Part shown: positions 11,473-62,629 of the stretch, piece by piece
How positions within the stretch are numbered: the first letter of the stretch is position 1
Layout: each line of letters starts with the position of its first letter
Assembly (NCBI GenBank): GCA_963965975.1
Contig: OZ014411.1
Location: 24,411,249 to 24,475,248 of the forward strand
DNA length: 64,000 bases
Source of the DNA: Xestospongia bergquistia
Lineage: Eukaryota; Porifera; Demospongiae; Haplosclerida; Petrosiidae
Reading direction: 5' to 3'
Program-made: the position numbers and the translations under genes
The notes under the pieces: model-generated
The model's input: only the letters and a program-made list of their open reading frames with translations
Database searches by the model: none
What the model was told of the DNA's origin: nothing

Positions 11473-14400
11473 ATGGCGACTTTCTTGGCAAAGATTCTTA
11501 GTGAGATATCTCAAGAGATTTCTAAATTTCGTGTTCTTGCACGCGTCCATTACATTCTAGAACCTATTCTATTTGAAGATGCCGATCCAACTTGTCTGAT
11601 ATCCATGTACGATTCCCTCAAAAATAGAGATTTAGATAATGACAATCCGCTTATATATTTTATATGGGCTCTTAGACACACTGCTCAAGAACGTCAAGCT
11701 AAGAAGTTAGAAGACTATCTTAAAGTGTCTTTACCTCAACACTGGCGTCCTTCTAACAGTATAACTGAAAGCAGACGTCTATTGATGAGAGCAATCCTTG
11801 TAAAATTAGATACTAATGAATACATGAGAAATGAGCAACAGTATAGTGTCTTTGTTAGCAATGTCATTCTGCATAGTGAACATATTGGGAAAAGTGACAG
11901 GTACCCTCATGATGATTGTGAAGCTAGAATGAACTTATATCGACGTATGGAACAGTCAATGATAATTACTCCTGACAATATGGAGTTTTTATTAAGGATA
12001 CTAAATGACATTGGTAATGTCCAGCTAAGAGATACAATTAGCACTTTGATAACTATATATCTTAAGTCAACTAGTCCAGTTGAGCCTCCTGTGTCACATG
12101 AGTTGTCTTCTTCACAAGTTTATAGTGTTCAACCATTACCTGGACCACCAGTACAGTATGTATCACAACACTTTCCTGTCATGACACCAAATGATGAAAT
12201 AGCAGGTCAGTTATTATTGTAATCATTCAACTTGATAACTTAAGATAACAATAGTAAAATTTAACATAATATTGAAAGTACAGTTTGGACTGATGGAATT
12301 GATTGTCATTTCCAGTACTAAAAATGAACTAATGTCTAGTCTGTTTTATTTATGGACATTAAATTTCATTGCTAAAATATACAAATAAAAAAGATTTAAG
12401 ATTAATATTTTAGTTGTGTCTACTGGTTACATGTAACTTAACAACTTTAAACTAGACTGATTTAATGGGTCGTGTACACAAATCAACTACATATTCTTAT
12501 GCCATTACTTTTACACAAAGCTTTCTTACTGTTTCTTAGGTGCAAGATACAGAATATATGAAGCTGGTAAAGAAATGACATCAGTCTATTCCCTATGGCC
12601 AGATATACCAAGTGGTGATTTCTTCTCACCTTGGCCCAAAATCAATAATCGCACGCGATATATTACTCTTGCTCTAGTGACTAACCACAGTGTCACTCGA
12701 GATGACGATTTCACTCATCGTACTTTACGACAATCAGAAGACGATATACCCAAACACAAATACGAAGTATTTTATGAAGATGTCTTCCCATTAGTAATGC
12801 CCTCTCACATGTCTCAAATACTCATTAGTGGTCGACCTGGATCTGGTAAAACTGTTCTTTTAACAAAAGTCAGCAAAGACTGGGCCAAAGGCTCATGTCT
12901 TAAAAATTTCTCAGCCTTGTTTCATATTTCTCTTCGTGAGTTGATCAGTAAATCTGACCGACCTGGGTTAGCAGATGTGGTTAGTCTTTTTTTTAGTTCT
13001 CCTGATCGTATCAGAGAAGTCACAAATGCTATTGATAAAGTAAATGGCGAGGGTGTTTGTTTTGCTTTGGATGGTTTAGATGAATACCCAAATCGTGATA
13101 CTTCATGGGATTTCATCATGTGCCTTATTAAGAAAACTAAGCTTCCACTATCATCTGTTATCATCACCTCTCGTCCAAGTGCTACTAGCAGTGTACCGAC
13201 AAGTACAATGAGCTGTCATATTGAGATTGTAGGTTTCTCACAAAAGCAAGTTGAAGAATATATTAATGATTACTATGTCTCTATATCACAATCAAATAAA
13301 GCACAAGAACTTCTTGAATATCTTGATACTCATCCTAACGTCAAAGATATGTGTTATTTGCCTCTTCATTTAGCTATGATAATTTATGTTAACCAGTATA
13401 AGAAATCCGAGACACTGCCAGAAACTGAGAGTGGAGTCTATGTTCGTTTTGTCACTCATTCCATTGTACGCTATGTCAGAAGAGAAAAGAAAGATGAGAA
13501 AAACGTTGATGTAGAAACATTTGATGATATGAAAGAATACCTCAGCGATGATGAGCTTCAACTTTTTAACTCTATTTGTTTTCTAGCATTTGAAATGAAG
13601 GCTAGATCACGACTGATTTTTAGTGCCAGGGACATTAAAAATAATTTCCCTCACTTTACTAAGGCACAACGAGACTGCTTAACAAAAAATGGCCTTGGAA
13701 TAATATCACATTATGCAAAGAAGGTTGAGACAGGTATAGATCCTCACTTTAGTTTTCAGCATCTTACAATTCAAGAGTTTCTCGGAGCCTTTCACATTAG
13801 TCAAATGGATGTTTCACAACATCTAAATTGCCTTAACAATCATGGTTACAAAATTGAAATGAGAGAGATGTGGCGATTCTTCTGTGGCCTAGTTAAATCC
13901 AGCTCACACACTGCCACATATTTTAACAAGCTCATTGAATTAAATCCTTTGCATGGAGGGGATACATTGTTTCTAATACGATGCATATTTGAAGCTCAAG
14001 GAAGTCGTGCTATACGTGAAATATGCGAAGATCTTTTATCATCACGTGAGGGTGTCCTCAATGTTAGCAATATTATTTTGTACTCACCAGACTGTTCAGC
14101 TATTGGACATATGATATCGCAATCTCCTGGTCATTTGAAACAACTACTGATGAATTATTGTCAAGTTGGTCCTGATGGTATTATGGCTTTAAATTATCAG
14201 TTAAACAGCTATAATGTGGAGACATTCACTAATATTTGGAACATGCAGTAAGTCCTACATTTACATGTATTTCAACAATCTTCTTGATACCTAACTAGAT
14301 TACAATTATTATTTCATTTAACTTATCCATTGAATAATTACTTGTACAATCATTTTCTTTTTCAATATATTGTACAGAGCTCTATACTAATATAACATTT

Positions 14401-45351: not shown

Positions 45352-48300
45352 TCAGTCAGTAATGATAGTATATATTTCTTTAGCTGCTTTCTTGTTGTCT
45401 TGTTTTGGTTGGTTATTGCTGTATCGTTTTACACTGGTATCTTTAAACGTATGAGTAGGGCTTAAGATGTATGGAATGAGTGAACTAAATACAAATGAGA
45501 TATTGGGCAATTGTAATCTCTTTTGCTTTGTCTTTTTATGAGTGTAGTATAAATCTTCAGATATTTTCGAGTGTTTTAGTTCAGTAGTTATTTGAGAAGG
45601 CATAGCTGTGGCCTTTTGCTTGTCAGATGATAGTAATAGTGACTTCAATTCTATCTCCTGTAATTGTGATGCTATCTGACCACCATATTGGGTTAATAGC
45701 TTGCTAATTGCTTCCAATTCAAACTCATTAGCATTTTCTAATGCTGTTCTTTTGCTAACAACAATGTTAGGATTAGCACCATTCTTCAAAAGTGTTTCTA
45801 CTATTGTAGTTGATTTACTTCCTACTACTGCAAAGAACAATGGAGTCAATCCTCGATAGCCATCTTTATTGACATCAGCTCCAGTTTGTATGAGAGCATC
45901 CACTATATCAACATGTCCATATGATGAAGCTACCATGAGTGGGGTAAGACCAAGTACCAGTGGAGTATCTGGATTTCCTAATATCTTCATTACAACTGTA
46001 CCTAAATCTCCCTTAATGCAAGCATCAAGTAGTTCTCTCTGGTCATCATTTAAGTGTAGAAGTTTGTTTGAGAGAAAGATAATGAGAGTAGAGTGACCAC
46101 CTAAACATGACTCTATAACTGCCTTTTCAATTTCATCAGAACTAGGTACAGTCTTGTCCAGAAGCATATCAACAAGCTCTCTGTTACCACTAAAAGCTGC
46201 TAATGAGAAAGCTGTTGATCCATTGTGCATTGATAAATAGGGATCTGCTTTTGATTTTAGTAAACTTTGAGCTACTTTAAAATGATTATAACGACAAGCT
46301 AGCATTAGGGCAGTCCATCCATCTTCTGTCTGAGAATTAATGTCAGCATGCTCTTTAAGTAATAGTTCAACAACCTGTTGATGACCTTTTTGACTAGCAA
46401 ACATTAAGGCTGTCCATCCACCTTCTTTTTGAGCATTAACGTTGACATGTTCTTTGAGTAGAAGTTCGACAGCCTGGGTATGACCATTGTAACTAGCTAT
46501 CATTAGACCAGTCCATCCATCTTCTGTCTGAGCATTAACATTGTCATGCTCTTTCAGTAGTAGTTCAATGACCTGGGTGTGATCATTACAGCTAGCTAGC
46601 ATTAGAGCAGTCACTCCATCTTTTGCTCGGAGATTTATGTCAGCATGTTCTTGAAGTAATAGTTCAATGACCTGGTGATGACCATTTTCACTAGCTAGCA
46701 TTAGGGCAGTCCTTCCATCTTCTTTCTGAGTATTAATGTTGACATGCTCTTTTAGTAGTAGTTCAATGACCCGGTGATGACCATTTTGACTAGCTAGCAT
46801 TAGGGCAGTCTCTCCATCCTTTTTCTGAGTATAAATATTAGCATGTTCTTTGAGCAATAGTTCAACAACCTGGTAATGACCATTTGAACTAGCTAGCATT
46901 AGAGCTGTCAGTCCATTTTTAGTCTGGAGATTAATATCAACATGTTCCTTGATTAATAGTTCAATGATCTGGTGGTGACCATTCTGACTAGCTAGCATTA
47001 GGGCATTCTCACCATCTTCTTTCTGAGTATTAATGTCAGCCTTCTCTTTCAGCAATTGTTCAACAACCTTGGTATGACCATTAAAACTAGCTAGCATTAG
47101 GGCTGTCCATCCATCCTCTTTCCGAGTGTTAATATTGGCATGCTCTTTGAGCAATAGTTCAACAACCTGGTGATGACCATGTGAACTAGCTAGCATTAGA
47201 GCTGTCAATCCATTTTTGGCCAGGAGATTAATATCAGCATGCTTTTTGATTAGCAGTTCAATAACCTGATGATGACCATTCTGACTAGCCAGCATTAGGG
47301 CAGTTCCACCATCTTCTTTATGAATATTAATATCAGCATGCTCCTTGATTAATAGTTCAATGACCTGGTGATGACCATTCTGACTAGCTAGTATTAGAGC
47401 GGTCCATCCATCCTCGTTTTGAGTATTAATATTGGCATGTTCTTTCAGCAATTGTTCAACAACCTTGGTATGACCATTAAAACTAGCTAGCATTAGGGCA
47501 GTCCACCCGTCCTCTTTCTGAGTGTTAACATTGGCACGCTCTTTGAGCAATAGTTCAACAACCTGGTGATGACCTTTAAAACTAGCTAGCATTAGAGCTG
47601 TCACTCCATTCTTGGCCTGAAGATTTATGTCAGCATCCTCTTTGATTAGTAGTTCAATGACCTGCAGATGACCTTTCTCACTAGCTAGCATTAGGGCAGT
47701 CCTTCCACCTTCTTTTTGAGTGTTAATATCAGCATGTTCCTTGATTAATAGTTCAATGATCTGGTGGTGACCATTCTGACTAGCTAACATTAGGGCATTC
47801 TCACCATCTTCGTTCTGAGTATTAATGTCAGCATACTCTTTAAGCAATAGTTCAACAACCTGGTGATGACCATTATAACTAGCTAGTATTAGAGCTGACA
47901 GTCCATTTTTTGTCTGGAGATTTATGTCAGCATGCTCTTTGACTAGTAGTTCAACAACCTGGTGATGACCACTCTGACTAGCTAGAATTAGGGCAGTCCC
48001 ACCATTTTCTTCCTGAATATTAATGTCAGCATGCTCTTTGAGCAATAATTCAACAACCTGGTGATGACCATTACGACTAGCTAGCATTAGAGCTGTCATT
48101 CCATTGTTTACCTGGAGATTAACGTCAGCATGTTCTTTGAGCAACAGTTCAACGACCTTGGTATGACCATTTAAGCTAGCTGCTATTAGAGCTGTCACTC
48201 CATTTTTTGTCTGGAGATTTATGTCAGCATGCTCTTTGATTAGTAGTTCAACAACCTGGTGATGACCCCTCTGACTAGCTAGCATTAGGGCAGTCCCACC

Positions 48301-51300
48301 ATCTTCCTTCTGAGTATTAATATCAGAATGTTCTTTGAGTAATAGTTCAACAACCTGGTGATGACCATTTTGACTAGCTAATGTTAGAGCAGTGTCTCCA
48401 TTTTTTCCCTGGAGATTAATATCAGCATGATCTTTGATCAATTGTTCAGTGACCTTGGTATGACCATTGAAACTAGCTAGCATTAGAGCTGTCTGTCCTT
48501 CTTGTGTCTGGAGATTTATGTCGGCATCCTCTTTGAGCAATAATTCAATGACTTGGTGATGACCCTTAAAACTAGCTAGCATTAGAGCTGTCAGTCCATA
48601 TTCAGCCTGGAGATTAATATTGGCATGCTCTTTGATTAGTAGTTCAATGACCTTGTCATGACCATTCAAACTAGCAAGCATTAGGGCAGTCCATCCAGAT
48701 TCTTTCTGAGTGTTAATATCACCATGCTCTTTAAGAAATAGTTCAACAACTAGGTTATGACCACATTGGCTAGCTAGCATTAGAGCTGTCAGTCCATTTT
48801 TTGCTTGGAGACTAATGTTGGCATGCTCTTTGATTAATAGTTCAACCACCTTGTAATGACCATGTTGACTAGCTAGCATTAGAGCAGTCAGTCCATCTTC
48901 TTTCTGAGTATTAATGTCAACATGCTCTTTGAGTAGTAATTCAACAACTTGGTGATGACCATTAACACTAGCTACCATCAGAGCTGTCAGTCCATTTTTT
49001 GTCTGGAGATTAATATCAGCATGCTCTTTGATTAATAGTTCAATGACCTGATGATGACCATTCTGACTAGCTAGTATTAGGGCAGTCCCACTATCTTCAT
49101 TATAAGTATTAATGTCAGCATGCTCTTTGAGCAATAGTTCAACCACTTTGTGATGACCATTCTGACTAGCTAGCATGAGGGCAGTCACTCCATCCTCTTT
49201 CTGAGTGTTAACAACAGCATGCTCTTTGAGTAGTAGCTGAACAATCTGGTGATTACCTTTTGAACTAGCGATCATTAGAGCAGTACTTCCATTTTCTTTC
49301 TGAGTATTAATGTCTACTTGTTCTTTGACTAGTAATTCAACAATCTGGATATGACCCTCTAGAATAGCTAGCATTAAGGCAGTCCATCCATCTTCTTTCT
49401 GTGTGTTAATAGCGGCGTGCTCTTTGAGTAGTAGTTCAACAACCTTGTGATGACCACCATGGCTAGCTAGCATTAGAGCAGTTAGTCCATTTTTTGCCTG
49501 GAGATTAATGCTGGCATGCTCTTTGATTAGTAGTTCAACAACCCCTTGATGACCATTTTGACTAGCTAGAAGGAGTGCTGTCATGCCTTCTTCATTGTAA
49601 TGGTCTATATCAGCCCCTAATTTAAGAAGAAATTGCATAGCTTCATTGTGACCAGCTTTTGCAGCTTCAAGAAGAGCTGACTCAAAAGTGAAGTTCATAT
49701 TCTCATCATCTTCTAGGATGGATTCACCATTAATGGTTAGACCAAAGATACCAATGAGACGCATAAACTGTAGCTTGCCTTGAGCATAAGCAATGAGACA
49801 ATTGGCTTTTGATTCAAGGACAATGTATTTAATTCGAACTGAACCTGTATCAATTGTGATATACTCCAAAAGAGATTGCTTAAATTGGTGTGGCAGTAAA
49901 TGTCTAATTAGTAGATAAAGTCCTTGAATGTTGGCATCATTCCATGGATTGTGTAGTTCAATGTAAATTTGAGGCATACTTGATAGATCTCCTATATGTG
50001 GAATGTATATACTTTTTAATTGATTTTTAAGTTGCTTAACAGTAAATGAGCAACGAAGAGTCTCAGCTTGATCCATATGATTTTTAAGTTCATTGACTAG
50101 GTTTTTCTTGTCTTCCCCAAAACATTCATCATTGAGAAACTTTTCACTTACATGCACAATTAATTCACAGTCTAAGAAGTCAAAGTATGGATGTAGTTTC
50201 TTGAAGAGTTCATCTAAATCATTACATTTGTTGATGTCACTCAGCTCTTCAATCCAGTATAGTTCATACTTAATCAACATTGTCACGTCTTCTATTTGTA
50301 ATTTTTGGCATTGTAGTTTATCAACAAGTGCTGATCGAACAGCAACTATCAATGTACTGAAGTTTTGGTGCAAACTCTGTAAAGAGGTACGAAGTTCCTT
50401 TTCTTTCTCTTTATTTTCTACTTCTATTTTTTGTTGATGAATGTTAGGGGCTATAGAGATATATAATAATTAGACATACAAAGAAATTTTATATTACCTT
50501 GAGAAATGATTGATTGAAATGTAGTTATTGGTATAGAGGTAGTTTGTTTTTGATATGTTTCTGAATCTAAAGTATATTGATGTGACAATAATTATCCTTC
50601 CCGTTACTGTAAAGCTTGAGAATATAAATTAATTATTTAAATATTTCTAAGGGTATTGTCAACTATAGGTTTATATCATCCTTTGGTTCGTTGAACATGC
50701 TTGCTATGTGATAACTCCAACATAGTGATATTGTTTTTTTTAGTTTAATCAAGAAGACATAGCTGTGATTTAGTTTGCAGTATTGTAATGTGAAATGTTA
50801 GCTATTGAAAGTCAAAGTAAAACTACATATGCTGTGCTCTAGCTAATCTGAAACTCATATCATTATGTACAGTGCATGGAGGTGTTGTATCAGATGATCA
50901 GTGGCCTCACTAACTAAATCTACACAAATAATTAATTAGCATAACGTTTGTGGCCACACAATCGATACCATGTTTATGTTGACTTAGGGTGTCTAGCTAT
51001 AGTTGATATGATAACCAATTGCAACAGACCAACAGAATAAAGAAAGTCACTAAATCTGATTGTAGGAGTCTTGTTACAATAGTAATTTCAAATGTATTAG
51101 GTCTAACATAACCTACCTTGTTTGATCATCACATTCTGATGCCCAAGACCATAACACAAAAGATGTAGTGATATATCACATTCCTTTTTAACTTCATCGA
51201 TCCAGTCTTTACATAACTTTTGAGCAGCCAATTTAGTTGGACCACCTTCACTGGAGAGGCATTGTAAGAAAAGCTGACAATGTTCTTGTAACTTTAAAAT

Positions 51301-52761
51301 ATCTTCATTGATAATTTGCATTCCCCTTTCAAATTCATTGATTACATTAACAACAGTTGGAGAATCTCTAACTGATTTACTTATCAGATCTTTAGAATAC
51401 ATTTCTGCAGCAACTTGGGGCAAACATCTACTTAGTTGGTTATTTAGGTCAGCAAAATGACTTGTCAGCACTCTTTTCAATACTTTACAAACTTCATCAC
51501 TCTTTATAGTACTGGTAACTATCCTATTACTGTAGAGATGTACAGAGGTACTTTCGGAAGGCCAAGTACATGTTTCTTCTTCCTGCCCATCTAAGAAAGG
51601 AAGGTCTGCATAATGGAGAATAATTTCATTGTTCATCTAAATTAGTTTTTTTATATATTACTTCAAATAAATTTATGCTGAGTCAACCTCTTCTAACAAA
51701 AATCAGCTAAGCAACTAAATCTTACTCCACACTGAAGTACAGAGTGAACAACATAATAAATTTGAAGTTTTAATGAAAAAGTAAGAACAAAAAAATTGAA
51801 GGGGCAAATTTTGGTATAATTCTGGTGCAAGGTAATGTTATTAAAAATTGAATATTTGGGCAAGTAATCTGTTTATTACCAGACTGCACATAGAGCTGTA
51901 CTGATGAATGGGTGGAGCTTTATGGACTAATGAACAACATATCATGAACTGCTTTAGCCTCACAAAGAGGTTGTCAACTGTGCACTTCAATATATAATAT
52001 CTATTATTTAAAGGAATGTAGTCAAGATGTTCATACAGCACAATGCTGTATGAGCATTGAAGTTATAACTGTGTAGAGTGCAGCAATATATTCAAAAAAA
52101 CATGAGAACAATAGAATGATTATTTTTTAATGATTATTTTTAAGGTACTAGTGTGTAATGAACTATACATAGGATCTACCTTCATTTTTAATATTTAGCT
52201 GTCTTCTCAGTGTAGTAGCTATATCAACATCACCACAACTTTCAACAGCTGAAATGAATTCTTCCCAAGTGGGAGCAGTACCATTTATAATCCACCATTG
52301 TAAACCTTCTTCTAAAACAAAGTGGTAATCTTGATCGCTGCTGGCTATTGTTTTGAGTCTTTTCCTCTCCTCCAGTGATACACCTAGAATACTAGTCAGT
52401 TCAGACCATTTATTTTTAATAACAAAACCACTCTTAACAAGAAGTCTTAGAGCATTACTTGATGTCAACTCTATTGAAGTAATTTGAAATATGTCCCATC
52501 AGTTATATGTTTTAATGTATACTGACCTGTTTTAGGTCCAGGGTTGAGTTCAACATCACCTGATAAAATGAGGAGAAGTAAGAGAAACAAGATGAGAGAA
52601 AATATCAAGGTACCACCACCATCATCTCCTGACATCAATAGTGACTTTATCCATCCAGGGATATCAGTGGTATGGGTAGAGTGAGTTGTTTTAGTGGTAT
52701 ATGGTATCAGATGACAATACCATAACCCAATGCAAGCTCTCCATTGGGAAATATCAATCAT
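45352..52761 (-). CDS. Death-domain ankyrin-repeat protein with N-terminal hydrophobic leader and 2A-like peptide (copy 1)
   Basis: Four exons: 52761-52527, 52470-52180, about 51590-51117 and 50450-45352, all in phase 1, giving about 2032 residues. Exon 1 has a hydrophobic segment (about residues 50-66) and then DVELNPGP at residues 69-76, the 2A stop-go motif. Exon 2 is a Death domain (NKWSELTSILGV, LQWWIINGTAPTWEEF, AVESCGDVDIATTL). Exon 3 is helical with a conserved EVCKVLK..LTSHFADL block. Exon 4 has a helical module of about 250 residues, 33 almost identical ankyrin repeats, a few divergent repeats and a conserved basic C-terminus. The exon 3 acceptor has an in-frame alternative 15 bp upstream. 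If 2A works, the leader is released and a cytosolic Death-ankyrin protein results; unskipped product would enter the ER. Partners are unknown. Confidence 0.82.
46315..49581 (-). repeat. 33 tandem 99-bp ankyrin units
   Basis: Exactly 3267 bp, that is 33 units of 99 bp, with consensus TALMLASQNGHHQVVELLLKEHADINTQKEDG. Units alternate between an INTQKEDG type and an LLIKEH..INLQ.KNG type, often in blocks of two or three, which indicates higher-order repeats. The paralogue has only 8 such units. Confidence 0.92.
52471..52526 (-). other. 56-bp intron directly after the 2A-coding sequence
   Basis: The donor GTCAGT follows two codons after the 2A proline, and the acceptor TTCAATAG precedes the Death-domain exon. 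The paralogous intron (62344-62397) is 54 bp. Reading through it adds about 17 codons before a stop, so retention would give a short leader-2A protein only. Confidence 0.7.
52534..52557 (-). other. 2A-like ribosome-skipping motif DVELNPGP
   Basis: Codons GAT to CCT encode D-V-E-L-N-P-G-P, which fits D(V/I)ExNPG|P exactly. It follows a Leu/Ile-rich helix and S-G, as in active 2A peptides. Skipping would occur between the Gly and the final Pro. Confidence 0.85.
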
Positions 52762-54687: not shown

Positions 54688-57600
54688 CTAGTGCATGACA
54701 GTATATATTTCTTTAGCTTCTTTCTTGTTGTCTTTTGGTTTATTCTTGATGTATCGTTTTACACTGGTATCTTTAAATGTATGAGTAGGGTTTAAGATGT
54801 ATGGAGTTAGTGAACTAAATATGGACAAGACATTGCGCAATTGTAATATCTTTTCCTTTGTCTTCCAATAATTAGTGTAATTGAAATCTTTATATGATGT
54901 TATTTGATTTAGTTCAGCAGTTATTTGAGAAGGCATAGCTGTAGCTTTTTGTTTGTCAGATGTTAATAATGATGACTTCAATTCTATCTCCTGTAATTGC
55001 AATGCTGTCTGACCACCATATTGGGTTAATAGCTTGCTAATTGCTTCCAATTCAAGCATATTAGCATCATCTAATGGTGCTTCCTTGTCAACAATTATGT
55101 TAGGACTAGCACCATTCTTCAAGAGTGTTTCCACTATTGAAATCGATTTACTTCCTACTACTGCAAAGAACAATGGAGTCAATCCTCGATAACAATTTTT
55201 ATTGACATCAGCTCCAGCTTGTATGAGAGCATCAACTATATCAACATGCCCATATGATGAAGCTACCATGAGTGGGGTAAGACCAAGTACCAGTGGAGTA
55301 TCTGGACTTCCTAATATCTTCATTATAACTGTACCTAAATCTCCCTTAATGCAAGCATCAAGTAGTTCTCTCTGGTCATCATTTAAGTGTAGAAGTTTGT
55401 TTGAGAGAAAGATAGCGAGAGTATAGTGACCACCTAAACATGACTCTATAACTGCCTTTTCAGTTTCATCAGAACTAGGTACAGTCTTGTCCAGAAGCAT
55501 ATTAACAAGCTCTCTGTTACCACTAAAAGCTGCTAACGATAAAGCTGTTGACCCATTGTGTTTTGTTAAATGGGGATCTGCTTTTGATTGGAGTAAACTT
55601 TGAGCTACTTTAAAATGTTTATAACGACAAGCTAGCATTAGGGCAGTCCATCCATCTTCTTCCTGAGTGTTAATGCTGGCATGCTCTCTAAGTAATAGTT
55701 GAATTACTTGGTGATGACCATTTAGGCTAGCTAGCATTAGGGCAGTCCATCCATCTTCTTTCTGAGCATTAATGTCAGCATGCTCTTTGAGTAGTAGTTC
55801 AATGACCTGTTGATGACCACCTTGGCTAGCTAGCATTAGGGCAGTCAGTCCATTTTTTGCCTGGAGATTAATGCTAGCATGCTCTTTGATTAATAGTTCA
55901 ATGACATGGTGATGACCATTTTGACTAGCTAACATTAGGGCTGTCCCTCCATCTTCTTTCTGTGCATTAACATTAGCATGCTCTTTGAGTAAACGCTCAA
56001 CAACCTGGTGGTGTCCATTAAAACTAGCTAGCATTAGGGCAGTTACTCCATCTTCTTTCTGAGTATTAATTTCAGCATGCTCTTTGAGTAATAGTTCAAC
56101 TACCTGGTGATGACCTTGAAAACATGCTATCATTAGGGCAGTCCCTCCATCTTTTTTCTGAGTATTAATGTTAGCATTCTCTTTGAGTAATACTTTAATA
56201 ACCTGATGATGACCATTATAACTAGCTAGCATTAGTGCTGTCACGCCATCTTCTTTCTGAGCATTAATGTTAGCATGCTCTTTGAGTAATAGTTCAACGA
56301 CCTGGTAATGACCATTTTCACTAGCAATCATTAGGGCAGTCACTCCATTTTCATTTTGAACATTTACATCAGCATGATTTTTGAGTAATAATTCGACGAC
56401 CTGGGCATGACCATTACTACTAGCTAGCATTAGGGATGTCTCCCCATTTTTATCCTGAACATTGATATCTATATGTTTATTAATTAGGAGCTCAACAGCA
56501 TTAACATTACCATCTATGGCAGCTTCATGAATACTGTTGTCGTTATGAAAGCTGACATCAATATCTATTAAGAATGATGTTAACATGAAATCTTCAGACT
56601 CTATAGAATTTTGAAGAACACGCCTGAAGCTAAAACTTTGGTTGTAATCTTCCATTAAAATAGGTTGATGACCAATATAAACTTCGTAAACACCAACCTG
56701 ATACATGAACTGTCTTTTCTCTACTGCATTGACTACAAGACTCTCTAATTGAGACTTGAGAACTACCAGCTTGCACACACATGCTGATCCTTCCTCTTCA
56801 ATTAAAATGTGATTCAGAAAAGGACTTGCATTAGAAAATGAGTAATTGAGTAATTTGCGTACATGGACTACATTTTTATTTTGCCATTGTTCATGAAACT
56901 TAAGGGTCATTGTAGATGATATATTTGGTGTAGCAACCAATTTAGGTAATGATACATGTTTCATGGCATGTCCTAAAGTTTGTAATTGAGTAGTTTCTTC
57001 AAAAGTCTTAACCATGTCAATGAAATTTTGTAAATGCTTTTGAAGTTTACCTCCAATAAACTTATCAACCATTTTCCTTAGTAGGACCATGTTTAACAAA
57101 TAGTAATGAGGTTGAAGAGCATTGAAGAGTTGGTCTACATTCTCAACCTTCAATTTGGTGTTCCCAAAATAATGACAAAGAAATTCTACAACATCAACTA
57201 ATAAAATTTTTCTTTCTGTTATTAGTTTCTGTAAACTTAATAGAATTTCTGTTTTGACAATTGTGAAGCTATCACAAACTTTCAAAAGTTGTTCAAGGAC
57301 CTCTTCCTTGCTTTTCTCCATCTTCACGACATTAAATTGTTGTAACAATTTACAAATATCTTCTCTTCTTTCTTCTCGTGCTTTGTCAGCAATACTCTGG
57401 CCATTGATATAGACACTAGGTTGAGCACAAGCTTTAAGTAGTTGTTCTATAACTTGAAATGACTTGTGTCCTGTTATAGCATATACTAGTGGACTGTACC
57501 CATTGCTGTCTGTATTGTTGACATGAGCTCCTACTTGTAGTAGGACTTGCACTGTCTCTGCATGTCCACAAGATGAGGTTACCATAAGAGGAGTGACACC

Positions 57601-60600
57601 ATTAGCTAGTGCACAATTGATATTAACATTGGAGTCATGAATATGGCATTCTGTAGAATCATTGTCTCCTTTAGCACATAAAATAAAAAGTTGGAATTCT
57701 TCTAGTGTAAACGTGTCAAAAAGCTTTTCTAATAAACTAATAATAATTTGAGAGTGTCCACATTGACATGCTGTACTAAGAGCTGATGTTACTGCACTTG
57801 ATTTCTGGCTCTCTGCTATCTGTTCAAGTAACATTTCCACTATCTCAGAAGAATTTTGACGTGTAGCTACTGTGATTGCTGTATCATCATTTCTGCTAGT
57901 GAGAAGCCGATCAGCATTAAATTGAAGCAACAAGTTGACAATGCCAAAGTGACTATTTTGACATGCTATTATGATAGCTGTGTCAAATGCATCATTTTGT
58001 AGATCAGGATTAGCCCCAGCCTGAAGTAGGTAATTCACTATAGTGTAGGAGTTTGTATCACATGCTATCATCAATGCAGTGTAACCATTGTTATCTTGAA
58101 TGTTAATATTACCTTCAGCCAATAATAGTGTTTGTATAACTTGTTCATGTCCTTCTTCACTAGCCAGCATAAGTGCTGTTCTGCCTTCATTGTTTTGATA
58201 ATTGAGATCATCAATTAAATCAAGTAGAAATTGAACAACTTCATCATCACCAAATTTTGAAGCCTCTTGTAATGCTTGGTCAAATGAAAATTGGGTTTCT
58301 TCTTCCTTTTTCAAGATATATTGACCATCAACAGTCATTTCAAAGATACCAATGAGTGATATGAATTCTTTCTTTAGATCAGAAATTTCCAAGAGGTAGT
58401 CTAACTTTGATCGAGGTACAAGTAAAGTAATGCATATTGATCCTTCCTCCACATGTATATGAGTCATTCTCTGATGAAACATGTGATTAACAAGTGTTTT
58501 AAAGTTCTCCAATGTTTTCTTTCCCCATTGACGATTAAGTTTGATAACTACTTCACATGTAATTGATGTGACTTCTGGATTTGGTATCAGTGCTTCTTCA
58601 ACTGCATTCTTGAACTTGCTAAGAGTTGTTGAGTGTTTAAATTCTTCAAGAAATTGCTTGTAATTACACATATCTCTCTGCAGTCTTTCTTCGATAAGAA
58701 AGTCTTCATTTTCAATGATAACTTCTAACACTTCAACATCAAGGTAACTGTAATGAGGCCAAAGGGCTTCAAATAGTTTGGGAATACCAGTAGCATCAGT
58801 TAATCCTTTAACTCTGAAATATTCTCCAAGGTAACTTGCAATATCAGTAAATGTATGTGTTCTGTTTTCAATCAACTTGTTAAGAGCCTGCTTGGTATTT
58901 TCAACTAATTTTACAAATTTATTGTACAAACTCCTCAATTTTTTAGCTACAGGATCATCAGGGGTGACTGTTATTTTTTGAAGTTGTTCATCGATTGAGT
59001 GGAAATCAAATTGTGAAGTCTTATCACCTTGTTGTTGTGCTACTATTTCTGTCTGCTCATTTTTATCACCTTGTTCAAAAGAAAAATTGTATATAATAGC
59101 AATGAAAGTAACATCAACCTACCTGCAGAAGTATTAGCTATCTTTAATAAGTCTAGTTGAATTTTATTTATATGATGAGACCCTATATAAATGGAAAACA
59201 CTAATGAAGCAGAGTCTCTTGCTCAGCCTAACATGGCAAGATAATTCATCAGTCAGGGAATACTCAAGTCCCAGAACACTAAAGAACTTGTTGGGTTACA
59301 TATCCACCAAACAGCTACTAGTTCTGTGTAGTTAAATACTTCATGTACTTGTGTTTGCAATAGTTTGCATCATGCTTTACTATAATCTAAATTATTAGAC
59401 ATCTTAGATGGGATCTATCCAATCTATCAACCTATAAGAAGCCTTTAAATACTTCATGCTTCGTGCTAGGTATCTATCTATATGAGGTCTCCTTGAATTA
59501 ACAAATTGTGTAGATCCCTAGTCTGGACATCTAATCTATATTTATGGTTATATACAGGTTGCTTCACATTAAAATAGATTGGTTGTGTATTGAAGAACAT
59601 ATTGATTTGATATGGAAATGCATGGTTATGTAGCTCAACAAATAACTCATCAAAAAAAATATGTGTGCATGGTGTTCTATCATAAATTAAGTAATGGCAT
59701 ATAAATATAATATGCTTAACAGAATCTTAATTACTCTAACAATAACTGGATTCTTGTCAATTTGTATGTTATTTTAGAAAAAAACAGTGCGATGTTTACT
59801 ATTTTCAATATCTCATTTTATATTATATACCACCTAAAGGACAATGTATGGTTTGAATCAACAATTCATACAATTAAATAGAGCTTTTAAAAAAAATTAA
59901 GTAAAGGTAGGGAACGTGGATGACTCACATGAAAACATACTTTTCTGTGTACAAATAATCTTATAAGTCTTCTACTTTTGTAGTTATTGTGGCATAAAAG
60001 TTAAGAAGAAAGAATATGTAGTGAATAAATAATTTTATATTTTAAGGAAGTGATTACACTAGGCAGATTTTTCATTCATGTTTGTATGTATTGTATTTGT
60101 ACTTTTATTATTATCTTAATTCACTGTAAAAATTGATTGGTTGATTCAACCAACATATAGTTATACAGGTAGTAGCAAAAATATTTATGCAAATGAAGAG
60201 TAAGCATCACATTGTTTTCATTCCTAACATACTAAAGATATTTAGTCAGTATGATATTACAGTGTGATGAAGCAGTCAATCGAATAGTACTTTAAGAATG
60301 AAAACAATATGTTTACTTTCAGTTTGCATCATAAATTTGCTTCAAATATACAACCTGTATGACCATATATTGGTTAAATCAACTAATAAATTTCTAGTTT
60401 TTAGATCACAAAGTGATGGCTCTTGTACTGTAGTTGCCATTAATAGTGTCTAGTTTACCAGTATTTCTCTCTCACAGTATCCATTAACAGAACCAGATGA
60501 TCTGAATAATTATCTTTGTGTACATAGCAGGTATGACTAAAATCTTTGCATGGAATTGCAATCCTGCACTATAGTTAACGTTATTTTATTGCAATTTTAA

Positions 60601-62629
60601 CAATGAGAACATTACATGCTTGCTTCATCTCGAATTTTGTATTACTGACCTTGTTGTTCAATATCCTGTTCATCACATGTAAGGTGTAATGAGATACTAC
60701 ATTTCTTTTTGACTTCTTCCACCCAGTTTTTACATAATTTTTGAGCTGCTAATTTTGTAGGACCACCTTCACTGCAGAGACATTGTAAGAAAAGTTGACA
60801 ATGTTCTTGTAACATTGAAATATTGTTTGCTAATTGCAGTCCACTTTCAAATTCATCAATCACACTGTCAATAGCTGGAGACTTTCTCACAGATTCATTA
60901 ATCATTCTTTTAGAATACATTGCTACAGAGACCCGTGGCAAACATCTACTTAACTGGTTACTTAAGTCAGCAAAATGGCTTGTCAGTACACTCTTCAACA
61001 CTTTACAAACTTCATTGCTTTCTATAGCACTGGAATCTTCTATATCACCATGTACAGAGTTACCATGAAGAGAAAAAGTCTGGTCTTTGACATGGTCATT
61101 TGTTCCTTTTTTCTGTCCTTCTATTTTCCCTTGGTAAAGAAAATAATTGGTAAAGATTGGGTCTAGATGAGTGAACTGCCAATCCAGTTCCACTCATCAA
61201 GTGAAACTTGTTATGTTTACATTCTTTATGTATTTTTATGCTGACTTTTCAATATGAATATCAAATAACAACAAATCTAACATTTTCTTATATTGGTTTA
61301 AAGAAATTCAAGAGAACTTTTTTATTCAATTCATTGTAAAAATTGATTAGTTAATTTAAACAATACATATCATTATACATGTTGAATGTAGCAAAATGAT
61401 TTGCTATGAATTGAAAGTAAACAGAGTATTGTCTTGATTACTGATGTACTATCGAATTTATGCTTACCAAATATTAGAACTTGTAAAGTTGTTTTGTATA
61501 ACAATAAACAATAAACCATCTTTTGGTAAACAATTAATTTTGTCATACATTAGTAAAAAAACAGCATTGTGCTTATTTTCAGTTTGCATCAAATAATTAT
61601 ATATATATATATATACATATAACCTGTATAACAATATATATTGGTTAAATCAACCAACAGTACAGATAAAGCCTCAATAAACCTAAGAACACCAACTTTA
61701 GAGCCAAAAACAACTTATTTTAAACAACTAACTGAGACTAATTCTCTTACACTATATACTGAAGTATAAACTGAACAATTAAGGTAATTTGAAGTTCTAT
61801 AACAAGTGTAAAAAATAAAAAAGTATAAAAAATATAAAGAAATAAATAAAAGAAAGTATAAAACAAAGTCTGAGAACGTAGAAAAGACAACCTTTAAAAG
61901 ATGCTGAAAAGGTTACTCATTGTCCACAAGCTAAACCCATTCATCAGTACATGAAATCACATAGAAGATACCTTGTTATATACTATTATATTACACTGCA
62001 TGATAACTATTTTTAAGGTACTAGTGTATAATGAACTATACATAGGATATACCTTCATTTTTAATATTTAGCTGTCTTCTCAGCATAGTAGCTACATCAA
62101 CATCTCCACAACTTTCAACGGCTGAAATGAATTCTTCCCAAGTAGGAGCAGTACCATTTGTAATCCACCATTGTAAACCTTCTTCTAAAACAAAGTGGAA
62201 ATCTTGATCACTGCTGGCTATTGTTTTGAGTCTTTTCCTCTCCTCCAGTGATACACCTAGAATACTAGTGAGTTCAGACCATTTATTTTTAATAACAAAA
62301 CCACTCCTAACAAGAAGTTGTAGAGCATTACTTAATGTCAACTCTATTGAAGTAATTTGAAATATGTCCCATCAGTTATGTTTTAATGTATACTGACCTG
62401 TTTTAGGTCCAGGGTTGAGTTCAACATCACCTGATAAAATGAGGAGAAGTAAGAGAAACAAGATGAGAGAAAATATCAAGGTACCACCACCATCTCCTGA
62501 CATCAATAGTGACTTTATCCATCCAGGGATATCAGTGGTATGGGTAGAGTGAGTTGTTTTAGTGGTATATGGTATCAGATGACAATACCATAACCCAATG
62601 CAAGCTCTCCATTGGCAAATATCGATCAT
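54688..62629 (-). CDS. Death-domain ankyrin-repeat protein with N-terminal hydrophobic leader and 2A-like peptide (copy 2)
   Basis: Four exons: 62629-62398, 62343-62053, about 61129-60650 and 59069-54688, all in phase 1, giving about 1794 residues. Exon 1 repeats the leader and DVELNPGP (residues 68-75), with one residue fewer than copy 1. Exon 2 is the Death domain (NKWSELTSILGV, ITNGTAPTWEEF). Exon 3 has the EVCKVLK..LTSHFADL block and a helical end (CQLFLQCL.SEGGPTKLAAQKLC). Exon 4 carries a helical module of about 250 residues, about 8 diverse ankyrin repeats, a second diverged helical module, then 8 near-identical 99-bp ankyrin units (55648-56439), divergent repeats and the same basic C-terminal tail. 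It is the upstream tandem paralogue of the gene at 45352. An immune or death-signalling scaffold is inference. Confidence 0.82.
60119..60393. mobile_element. MITE, same family as 24951 and 61329
   Basis: The left arm (CACTGTAAAAATTGATTGG ... ATACAGGTAGTAGC) and right arm (TTTCAGTTTGCATC ... CAACCTGTATGACC ... GGTTAAATCAACT) are inverted copies of about 80 bp. It lies in intron 3 of the Death-ankyrin gene, copy 2. Confidence 0.75.
61329..61660. mobile_element. MITE, same family as 24951 and 60119
   Basis: The arms ATTGTAAAAATTGATTAG ... GAAAGTAAAC and TTTTCAGTTTGCATC ... ACCTGTATAAC ... GGTTAAATCAACCAAC are inverted copies. A (TA)n tract sits in the right half. It lies in intron 2 of copy 2. 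Confidence 0.72.
62405..62428 (-). other. 2A-like ribosome-skipping motif DVELNPGP (copy 2)
   Basis: The same eight codons as at 52534-52557, again after the hydrophobic helix and directly before the exon end. Confidence 0.85.

What the first reader, a model, noticed from the sequence alone, without database searches (positions are those of the whole stretch)
52527..52761. Hydrophobic leader plus 2A stop-go peptide at the N-terminus of a Death-ankyrin protein
The exact motif DVELNPGP follows a Leu-rich hydrophobic helix, and the exon ends two codons later. 2A-like sequences fused to signal sequences are known from sea-urchin NLR-type proteins, where they give dual targeting. Here the same device sits before a Death domain and a large ankyrin array. 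One mRNA could give a free cytosolic receptor-like protein plus a short leader, or an unskipped ER-directed form. I know of no description of this for Death-ankyrin genes.
Basis: partly seen in the sequence, partly recalled or inferred. Interest (0 to 1): 0.9.

Follow-up and report, generated by a model that had tools for sequence, protein, structure and literature searches.

The report
Ribosome-skipping leader on sponge immune receptors
In a genome that appears to be a sponge's, many innate-immune receptor genes begin with the same membrane-seeking leader followed by a '2A' signal that should make the ribosome let go of the leader and carry on with a separate receptor protein, a device known mainly from viruses, mobile elements and sea-urchin receptors.

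Summary
It is one of a family: 163 (D/G)(V/I)ExNPGP cores genome-wide, 0 for the reversed pattern; 135 of 150 leader-homologous hits end at a core; 45 of these 135 precede NACHT (NLR) exons, 33 an ankyrin-type module, 5 GBP GTPases, 40 nothing assigned. Amphimedon queenslandica NLR and Death-ankyrin proteins carry the same leader. Conservation fits function (core pN/pS 0.09; 128 of 131 open leaders keep it versus 4 of 10 interrupted). Best reading: StopGo yields a cytosolic receptor plus a ~75-aa peptide with a C-terminal membrane helix. It works like sea-urchin 2A signal sequences but differs in leader, scale and receptor range. Activity was not assayed; Rao 2025 could not be read; the species is inferred to be a sponge.

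The parts
52527..52761 (-). gene 1 exon 1: complete leader + 2A core + KT, donor in phase 1
   Evidence: leader homology
52714..52761 (-). gene 1 leader N-terminal module MIDISQWRACIGLWYC
   Evidence: conserved across own and A. queenslandica leaders
52564..52614 (-). gene 1 hydrophobic helix, leader residues 50-66
   Evidence: Kyte-Doolittle mean 3.02 over 17 residues
52534..52557 (-). gene 1 StopGo core DVELNPGP; predicted release between G and P
52180..52470 (-). gene 1 exon 2: Death-like domain (phase 1-1 exon)
51117..51605 (-). gene 1 exon 3 (phase 1-1), no Pfam family at 0.01
45352..50450 (-). gene 1 exon 4: module plus ankyrin array, stop; whole model 2037 aa
62398..62629 (-). gene 2 exon 1: leader + 2A core (paralogue)
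62405..62428 (-). gene 2 StopGo core DVELNPGP
62053..62343 (-). gene 2 exon 2: Death-like domain
60650..61129 (-). gene 2 exon 3
   Evidence: only a below-cut-off Pfam match
54688..59069 (-). gene 2 exon 4: two diverged copies of the module and ankyrin arrays, stop; whole model 1794 aa

Best explanation
The exon is a member of a large, conserved family of 5' exons that put a bipartite leader and an active-type StopGo (2A) signal in front of cytosolic innate-immune receptors of sponges. During translation the N-terminal module emerges while the hydrophobic helix and LLxLSGDVELNPG sit in the exit tunnel; the ribosome releases the leader after the Gly and continues from Pro. The main products are a free cytosolic receptor starting with Pro (about 1962 aa for gene 1) and a 75-aa leader peptide whose helix is at its C-terminus, so it would be inserted post-translationally like a tail-anchored protein. 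A minority of unskipped chains would be SRP-handled and membrane-anchored or ER-directed. Shown: sequence, exon family, conservation, position before receptor exons, occurrence in A. queenslandica protein models. Inferred: that the genome is a sponge's, StopGo activity, cytosolic location of the receptor, tail-anchored fate of the leader.
For: 163 cores vs 0 reversed. 135 of 150 leader hits end at a core. 128 of 131 full-length open leader hits keep it versus 4 of 10 with in-frame stops, Fisher p=1.7e-6. pN/pS 0.086 core, 0.195 hexapeptide, 0.251 N-module, 0.844 helix (24 own leaders). 24 of 24 own and 89 of 100 database leaders have an LLxLSG-like hexapeptide before the core; Li et al. 2026 (PMC12846837, section 10 read) describe LLLLSG-like contexts (motifs 2 and 6), and all four motifs they assayed (1, 3, 4, 6) were active in reticulocyte lysate. 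Of 135 leaders with core, 45 precede NACHT, 33 the ankyrin-type module, 5 GBP; within 3 kb NACHT is downstream on the same strand for 41, upstream for 5, opposite strand for 0, and the ankyrin module 30, 1, 0. A. queenslandica NACHT and ankyrin proteins start with the same leader; 109 of 111 retrieved proteins have the core. The helix ends 7-12 residues before the Gly in 24 of 24 own leaders.
Against: No translation, proteomic or RNA data. The leader query itself contained the core, and the leaders used for pN/pS and identities were picked by an expression containing the core and part of the N-module, so conservation there is partly by construction (W14 and the hexapeptide were not in it). Copies are tandem paralogues, and three of the six interrupted, core-less copies look like copies of one another (same stops), so the Fisher value is too small. 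Li et al. report that motifs 2, 4 and 6 go with Ser as the x of ExNPGP; here x is mostly Leu, not assayed in what I read. 11 of 100 database leaders lack the LLxLSG context, including PPTG-DVELNPGP. 40 of 135 leaders have no assigned downstream domain. GBP exons lie as often upstream as downstream of leaders (5 and 5), so that link is positional only. 49 of 95 NACHT exons have no such leader within 9 kb, so it is not needed for NLRs in general. Tail anchoring rests on geometry only.
Confidence: 0.75

Rival explanations
1. Dual targeting exactly as in sea urchin: the leader is a signal or signal-anchor sequence, and the point of the 2A is to share one receptor between cytosol and exocytic pathway at a set ratio. 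The released leader itself does nothing.
For: Roulston 2016 (PMC4981915; parts 1-3 of 6 of the text read) estimated about 80% skipping in vitro and showed Golgi location and secretion of a skip-dead mutant for SpNLR2A6. The sponge flank after the helix (counted to NPGP) is negative (mean -1.96; before the helix -0.46; the front flank is the more positive in 19 of 24, equal in 4), which favours N-in/C-out if the chain is not skipped.
Against: It does not explain why the first 16 residues are conserved (own x database identity 0.70 against 0.11 in the middle; 12 own and 22 database leaders) when any signal would do. The helix is about 50 residues in, not N-terminal. A lumenal NLR or ankyrin scaffold would lose its usual partners (inference).
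Confidence: 0.35
2. The NPGP core is a remnant without activity; all chains are fusions, i.e. membrane-bound receptors with an N-terminal anchor. The D. avara NLR paper infers putative membrane-bound NLRs from transmembrane domains (PMC12909245, passages seen).
For: Sponge NLR models with transmembrane segments are reported; activity was not assayed here.
Against: pN/pS 0.086 in the core against 0.844 in the helix; core lost preferentially in interrupted copies (copies not independent); LLLLSG-like context; kept both here and in A. queenslandica.
Confidence: 0.08
3. The leader-2A exon belongs to a retrotransposon, or was recently taken from one, rather than to the receptor genes.
For: 2A is known in non-LTR retrotransposons (stated in PMC4981915). 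In this genome L018 has 2A followed by a PHD finger (PF00628, E=5.4e-7) with a below-cut-off endonuclease match (E=0.00021) in the same locus; L014, L015 and L035 look alike by eye.
Against: The window exons join in phase to Death-like and ankyrin exons; the four element copies read lack the QWRxxIGLW module in the part seen; leader copies sit upstream of immune-type exons in a fixed orientation and recur in A. queenslandica proteins. An ancient origin of the 2A part from such an element is not excluded.
Confidence: 0.05

Closest known systems
[quoted passage not shown] 2016, PMC4981915)
   Same: D(V/I)ExNPGP at the N-terminus of Death/NACHT innate receptors, long hydrophobic side chains just before it, large gene family.
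   Different: Sea-urchin leaders are 26 aa and 12 of 14 were predicted signal sequences. The leaders here are 58-70 aa before the core (51-153 in database proteins), have a conserved N-terminal module, and also precede ankyrin-type genes.
Viral StopGo/2A with LLLLSG-like upstream motif (motifs 2/6 of Li et al. 2026, PMC12846837)
   Same: Leu-rich hexapeptide ending (A/S/C)G followed by D and the NPGP core.
   Different: Here in cellular genes, N-terminal, membrane helix overlapping the 2A context, and Leu rather than Ser as the x of ExNPGP. [quoted passage not shown]
2A in APE-type non-LTR retrotransposons (Odon et al. 2013, not held, title only seen)
   Same: Hydrophobic run then 2A, then a small domain (PHD in L018 of this genome).
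   Different: Mobile element protein; no QWRxxIGLW module in the four copies read.
Sponge NLR families of A. queenslandica and Dysidea avara (PMC12909245, passages seen)
   Same: Leader found on A. queenslandica NACHT proteins; transmembrane domains noted in sponge NLRs.
   Different: The main text has no 2A-like, NPGP or signal peptide (term search).

Membership tests
StopGo / 2A sequences | (D/G/C/N)(V/I)ExNPGP core | tested here: met
   DVELNPGP at 52557-52534 and 62428-62405
StopGo / 2A sequences | recognised upstream hexapeptide context | tested here: met
   LLILSG, LLLLSG-like class; x of ExNPGP is Leu, not the Ser preferred by motifs 2 and 6
StopGo / 2A sequences | demonstrated peptide-bond skipping | not testable with these tools
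   needs translation assay
SpNLR2A-type translational-recoding signal sequence | 2A at the N-terminus of an innate receptor | tested here: met
   gene models; NACHT association; A. queenslandica proteins
SpNLR2A-type translational-recoding signal sequence | short (26 aa) leader that is itself a signal sequence | tested here: not met
   75-aa leader, helix at residues 50-66; no signal-peptide predictor was available
SpNLR2A-type translational-recoding signal sequence | unskipped form enters exocytic pathway | not testable with these tools
   needs cell expression
Death-ankyrin proteins | ankyrin repeats | tested here: met
   Ank_2 E=0
Death-ankyrin proteins | Death domain | tested here: inconclusive
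   no Pfam Death hit for the exon itself; homologous to Pfam-positive exons; weak model
NLR (NACHT receptors) | NACHT domain in the window's two 2A genes | tested here: not met
   no NACHT in exons 2-4 of the two models; NACHT follows 45 of 135 leaders genome-wide
Tail-anchored membrane proteins (released leader) | single hydrophobic helix close to the C-terminus | tested here: met
   24 of 24 own leaders have one segment, ending 7-12 residues before the Gly; among 100 database leaders 52 have one, 37 have two or three, 11 none
Tail-anchored membrane proteins (released leader) | post-translational membrane insertion | not testable with these tools
   needs insertion assay

The most novel reading that the evidence does not exclude
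Sponges make, from one mRNA and in a fixed ratio, a cytosolic innate-immune receptor and a small tail-anchored membrane partner carrying the conserved QWRxxIGLWxC module. The shared partner would tie NLR, Death-ankyrin and perhaps GBP-type receptors to one membrane platform, and 'membrane-bound' sponge NLRs would in part be cytosolic proteins whose anchor is shed during synthesis.
Probability: 0.35. Interest if true: 0.9.

Novelty: new variant of a known kind. Interest (0 to 1): 0.8.

Why it matters
StopGo is treated as almost confined to viruses and mobile elements. Here it is a recurrent 5' exon, more than a hundred copies in one genome, kept also in Amphimedon and shared between different receptor architectures. 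If active it changes how sponge NLRs are read (an N-terminal transmembrane segment would not make a membrane receptor), gives a case of cellular recoding at gene-family scale, and offers a conserved leader peptide of unknown function that can be tested directly.

Tried and rejected
Considered and rejected: chance match (0 in shuffles; 0 reversed); retrotransposon remnant for the window copies (see rivals). The short 34-aa reading of the leader from a later Met was rejected because the upstream MIDxxQWRxxIGLW is the conserved start. A DNA pattern for the module was mis-specified (wrong Gln codon) and is not used. A regular expression for Death-like exons failed and was replaced by known coordinates. 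Profile search of the Death-like exon against PDB sequences gave nothing useful (best E=0.66); BLASTP to P0004 was not significant (E=0.26); a profile of it against the 111 database proteins gave only weak partial matches (best E=0.00026 in that small set). A third protein search from P0001 found only itself, so spread to further sponges could not be shown. That the genome is a sponge's is inferred from the nearest leader relatives (A. queenslandica); no marker gene was tested. Not held and so not read: Rao 2025 Cell Rep (PMC12338488) and Odon 2013 (PMC3708506); novelty against Rao 2025 is therefore unverified. Yuen et al. on A. queenslandica NLRs was not looked up; it is known here only through passages of PMC12909245.

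Rows and recounts: one search had used 103 of the 150 rows; one search repeats the count with all 150, which moved the ankyrin class from 32 to 33 of 135 and the Death-like-only class from 13 to 12. All rows (150; 98; 95; 27) and all 163 cores (66, 95, 2) were used. The leader search scored 150 of 193 candidates, so its counts are lower bounds; the Death search scored 150 of 983 and the module search 150 of 199. Of 33 genome loci L009-L041, nine were left out beforehand for (L010, L014, L015, L017, L018, L035-L038), L021 and the second leader of L016 failed the expression, and 24 leaders (two of them the window's own) were counted. For the database side 100 of 111 proteins passed the expression; the database flank-charge row used 14 of these 100.

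Full report
Observation. The exon at 52761-52527 (minus strand) encodes MIDISQWRACIGLWYCHLIPYTTKTTHSTHTTDIPGWIKSLLMSGDDGGGTLIFSLILFLLLLLILSG-DVELNPGP-KT and ends at a GT donor in phase 1. Spliced to 52470-52180, 51605-51117 and 50450-45352 it gives an uninterrupted 2037-aa model; a tandem paralogue (62629-62398, 62343-62053, 61129-60650, 59069-54688) gives 1794 aa; the three introns of each are phase 1. These are models from sequence; no RNA was seen. The core occurs twice in the window, 0 times in 100 shuffles.

The family. In the whole genome (146 Mb, 21 contigs, unnamed; taken to be a sponge's because the nearest relatives of the leader are A. queenslandica proteins, not otherwise tested) the core pattern occurs 163 times and the reversed pattern never (66 DV rows, 95 rows with D/G then I, 2 GV). 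A search with the 74-aa leader, which included the core, gives 150 matches, a lower bound because 150 of 193 candidates were scored; 135 of 150 end exactly at a core. Downstream on the same strand and before the next leader: NACHT within 9 kb for 45 of 135, the ankyrin-type module for 33, GBP for 5, only the Death-like exon for 12, nothing assigned for 40 (with all 150 rows; one search had 32 and 13). As an orientation control, within 3 kb NACHT is downstream of 41 leaders, upstream of 5 and on the opposite strand downstream of 0; for the module 30, 1 and 0; for the Death-like exon 72, 2 and 0. GBP, counted within 9 kb, is 5, 5 and 0, so its link is positional only. The Death-like exon lies a median of 62 bases after the leader (range 50-1421, 72 cases). 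One of the unassigned cluster on contig C4 was sampled (L041) and has an exon next that looks Death-like by eye and is not recognised by Pfam. Conversely 46 of 95 NACHT exons have a leader with core within 9 kb upstream; three more follow a core without a leader match; a cluster on C2 (29 rows) has none. Single loci suggest further partners by neighbourhood only: TPR-CHAT (L010), MATH (L026), a below-cut-off COR match (L028). The phase-1 design would allow shuffling of such a leader exon; that is inference.

Other species. A protein search with the leader plus Death-like part found five A. queenslandica proteins, four NACHT and one ankyrin, and one unnamed NACHT protein from a 10.5-Mb contig, each with a QWRxxIGxW leader and core; in one (P0003) the leader is internal, probably two genes merged in one model. 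A second search from one of these gave 108 proteins, for the most part of NACHT or ankyrin type; the rows with a named source were A. queenslandica, the rest unnamed. Of the 111 proteins in all, 109 have the core and 103 the module. P0012 has leader, Death (E=0.001, below the curated cut-off) and ankyrins, the architecture of the window gene.

What is conserved. Between 12 non-redundant own and 22 database leaders, identity is 0.70 in the first 16 residues, 0.11 in the middle, 0.15 in the helix, 0.65 in the six residues before the core and 0.95 in the core; within the 24 own leaders pN/pS is 0.251, 0.844, 0.195 and 0.086 for N-module, helix, hexapeptide and core. Part of this is by construction, since leaders were picked by an expression containing the core and some module residues; Trp14, not in the expression, is present in 24 of 24 and 100 of 100. 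Of full-length leader hits with an open frame 128 of 131 keep the core, of those with in-frame stops 4 of 10 (copies are tandem paralogues and three of the six core-less interrupted ones share the same stops, so the p value of 1.7e-6 is too small). So two parts are kept and two drift, which argues that both the StopGo signal and the N-module matter.

Mechanism. The hexapeptide is LLxLSG-like in 24 of 24 own leaders and 89 of 100 database leaders. Li et al. 2026 (abstract and introduction, section 10, and passages seen) list LLLLSG-like among the main StopGo contexts and found the four motifs they assayed active in vitro, among them motif 6, which resembles it; their motifs 2 and 6 prefer Ser at the variable position where these leaders have mostly Leu. 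The core is therefore expected to work; this was not assayed. In 24 of 24 own leaders the helix ends 7-12 residues before the Gly. From general knowledge the exit tunnel covers about 30-40 residues, so at the moment of skipping the helix is inside and the N-module outside. Release then gives a peptide with a C-terminal helix, which by established rules is handled post-translationally (tail-anchored route), while the receptor starts anew at Pro without a targeting signal. If skipping fails, the helix becomes a signal-anchor; the more negative flank after it (mean -1.96 vs -0.46 before it, own leaders) would place the receptor in the lumen. Database leaders are more varied: 52 of 100 have one hydrophobic segment, 37 two or three, 11 none by the same measure.

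Known or new. Roulston et al. 2016 (parts 1-3 of 6 read) established the idea for sea-urchin NLRs; a term search of that text found no 'sponge', 'Porifera', 'ankyrin' or 'death domain'. A 2026 paper on sponge NLRs notes transmembrane domains and putative membrane-bound NLRs, and has no NPGP or 2A-like (passages seen). Paper searches (listings seen) showed no title or abstract start describing 2A leaders on sponge receptors; the library lacks Rao 2025 and Odon 2013, so a prior mention cannot be excluded. I file it as a new variant of the sea-urchin device: it works like it, but the short-signal feature was tested and not met.

Limits.

Noticed in passing
L018:8019-8828 (-); L014/L015 near 1499; L035 near 295; likely C4:8604524-8907047 (10 rows with near-identical cores, one of them L035): 2A followed by a PHD finger (Pfam in L018, by eye in the others), a probable non-LTR retrotransposon ORF1 (below-cut-off endonuclease match in L018) with its own hydrophobic run before the core.
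   Followed up: partly
L010:5040-8536 (-): A diverged leader (MIDIGVWRARIGLFN...AGDVEVNPGP) lies upstream of TPR and CHAT exons, a possible 2A leader on a caspase-like TPR-CHAT protein.
   Followed up: partly
A. queenslandica proteins P0068, P0078, P0104 and others: Some models have PPTG instead of LLLLSG directly before the core, as if an exon were skipped; if real, splicing could tune StopGo efficiency.
   Followed up: no
window 12815-13273 (+): A NACHT exon (NLR) in the same window; the only two canonical cores of the window belong to the other two genes.
   Followed up: no
L036:293 (C7:5979092, with like cores at 5987727 and 6004083): A separate small cluster with MADSIPIMYRREDTIFLLRCGDIESNPGP, unrelated leader, unknown downstream gene.
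   Followed up: no
G000 C2:8826416-9147120: Cluster of 29 NACHT rows without the leader, in the same genome as the leader-bearing NLRs: a natural internal comparison for function.
   Followed up: no
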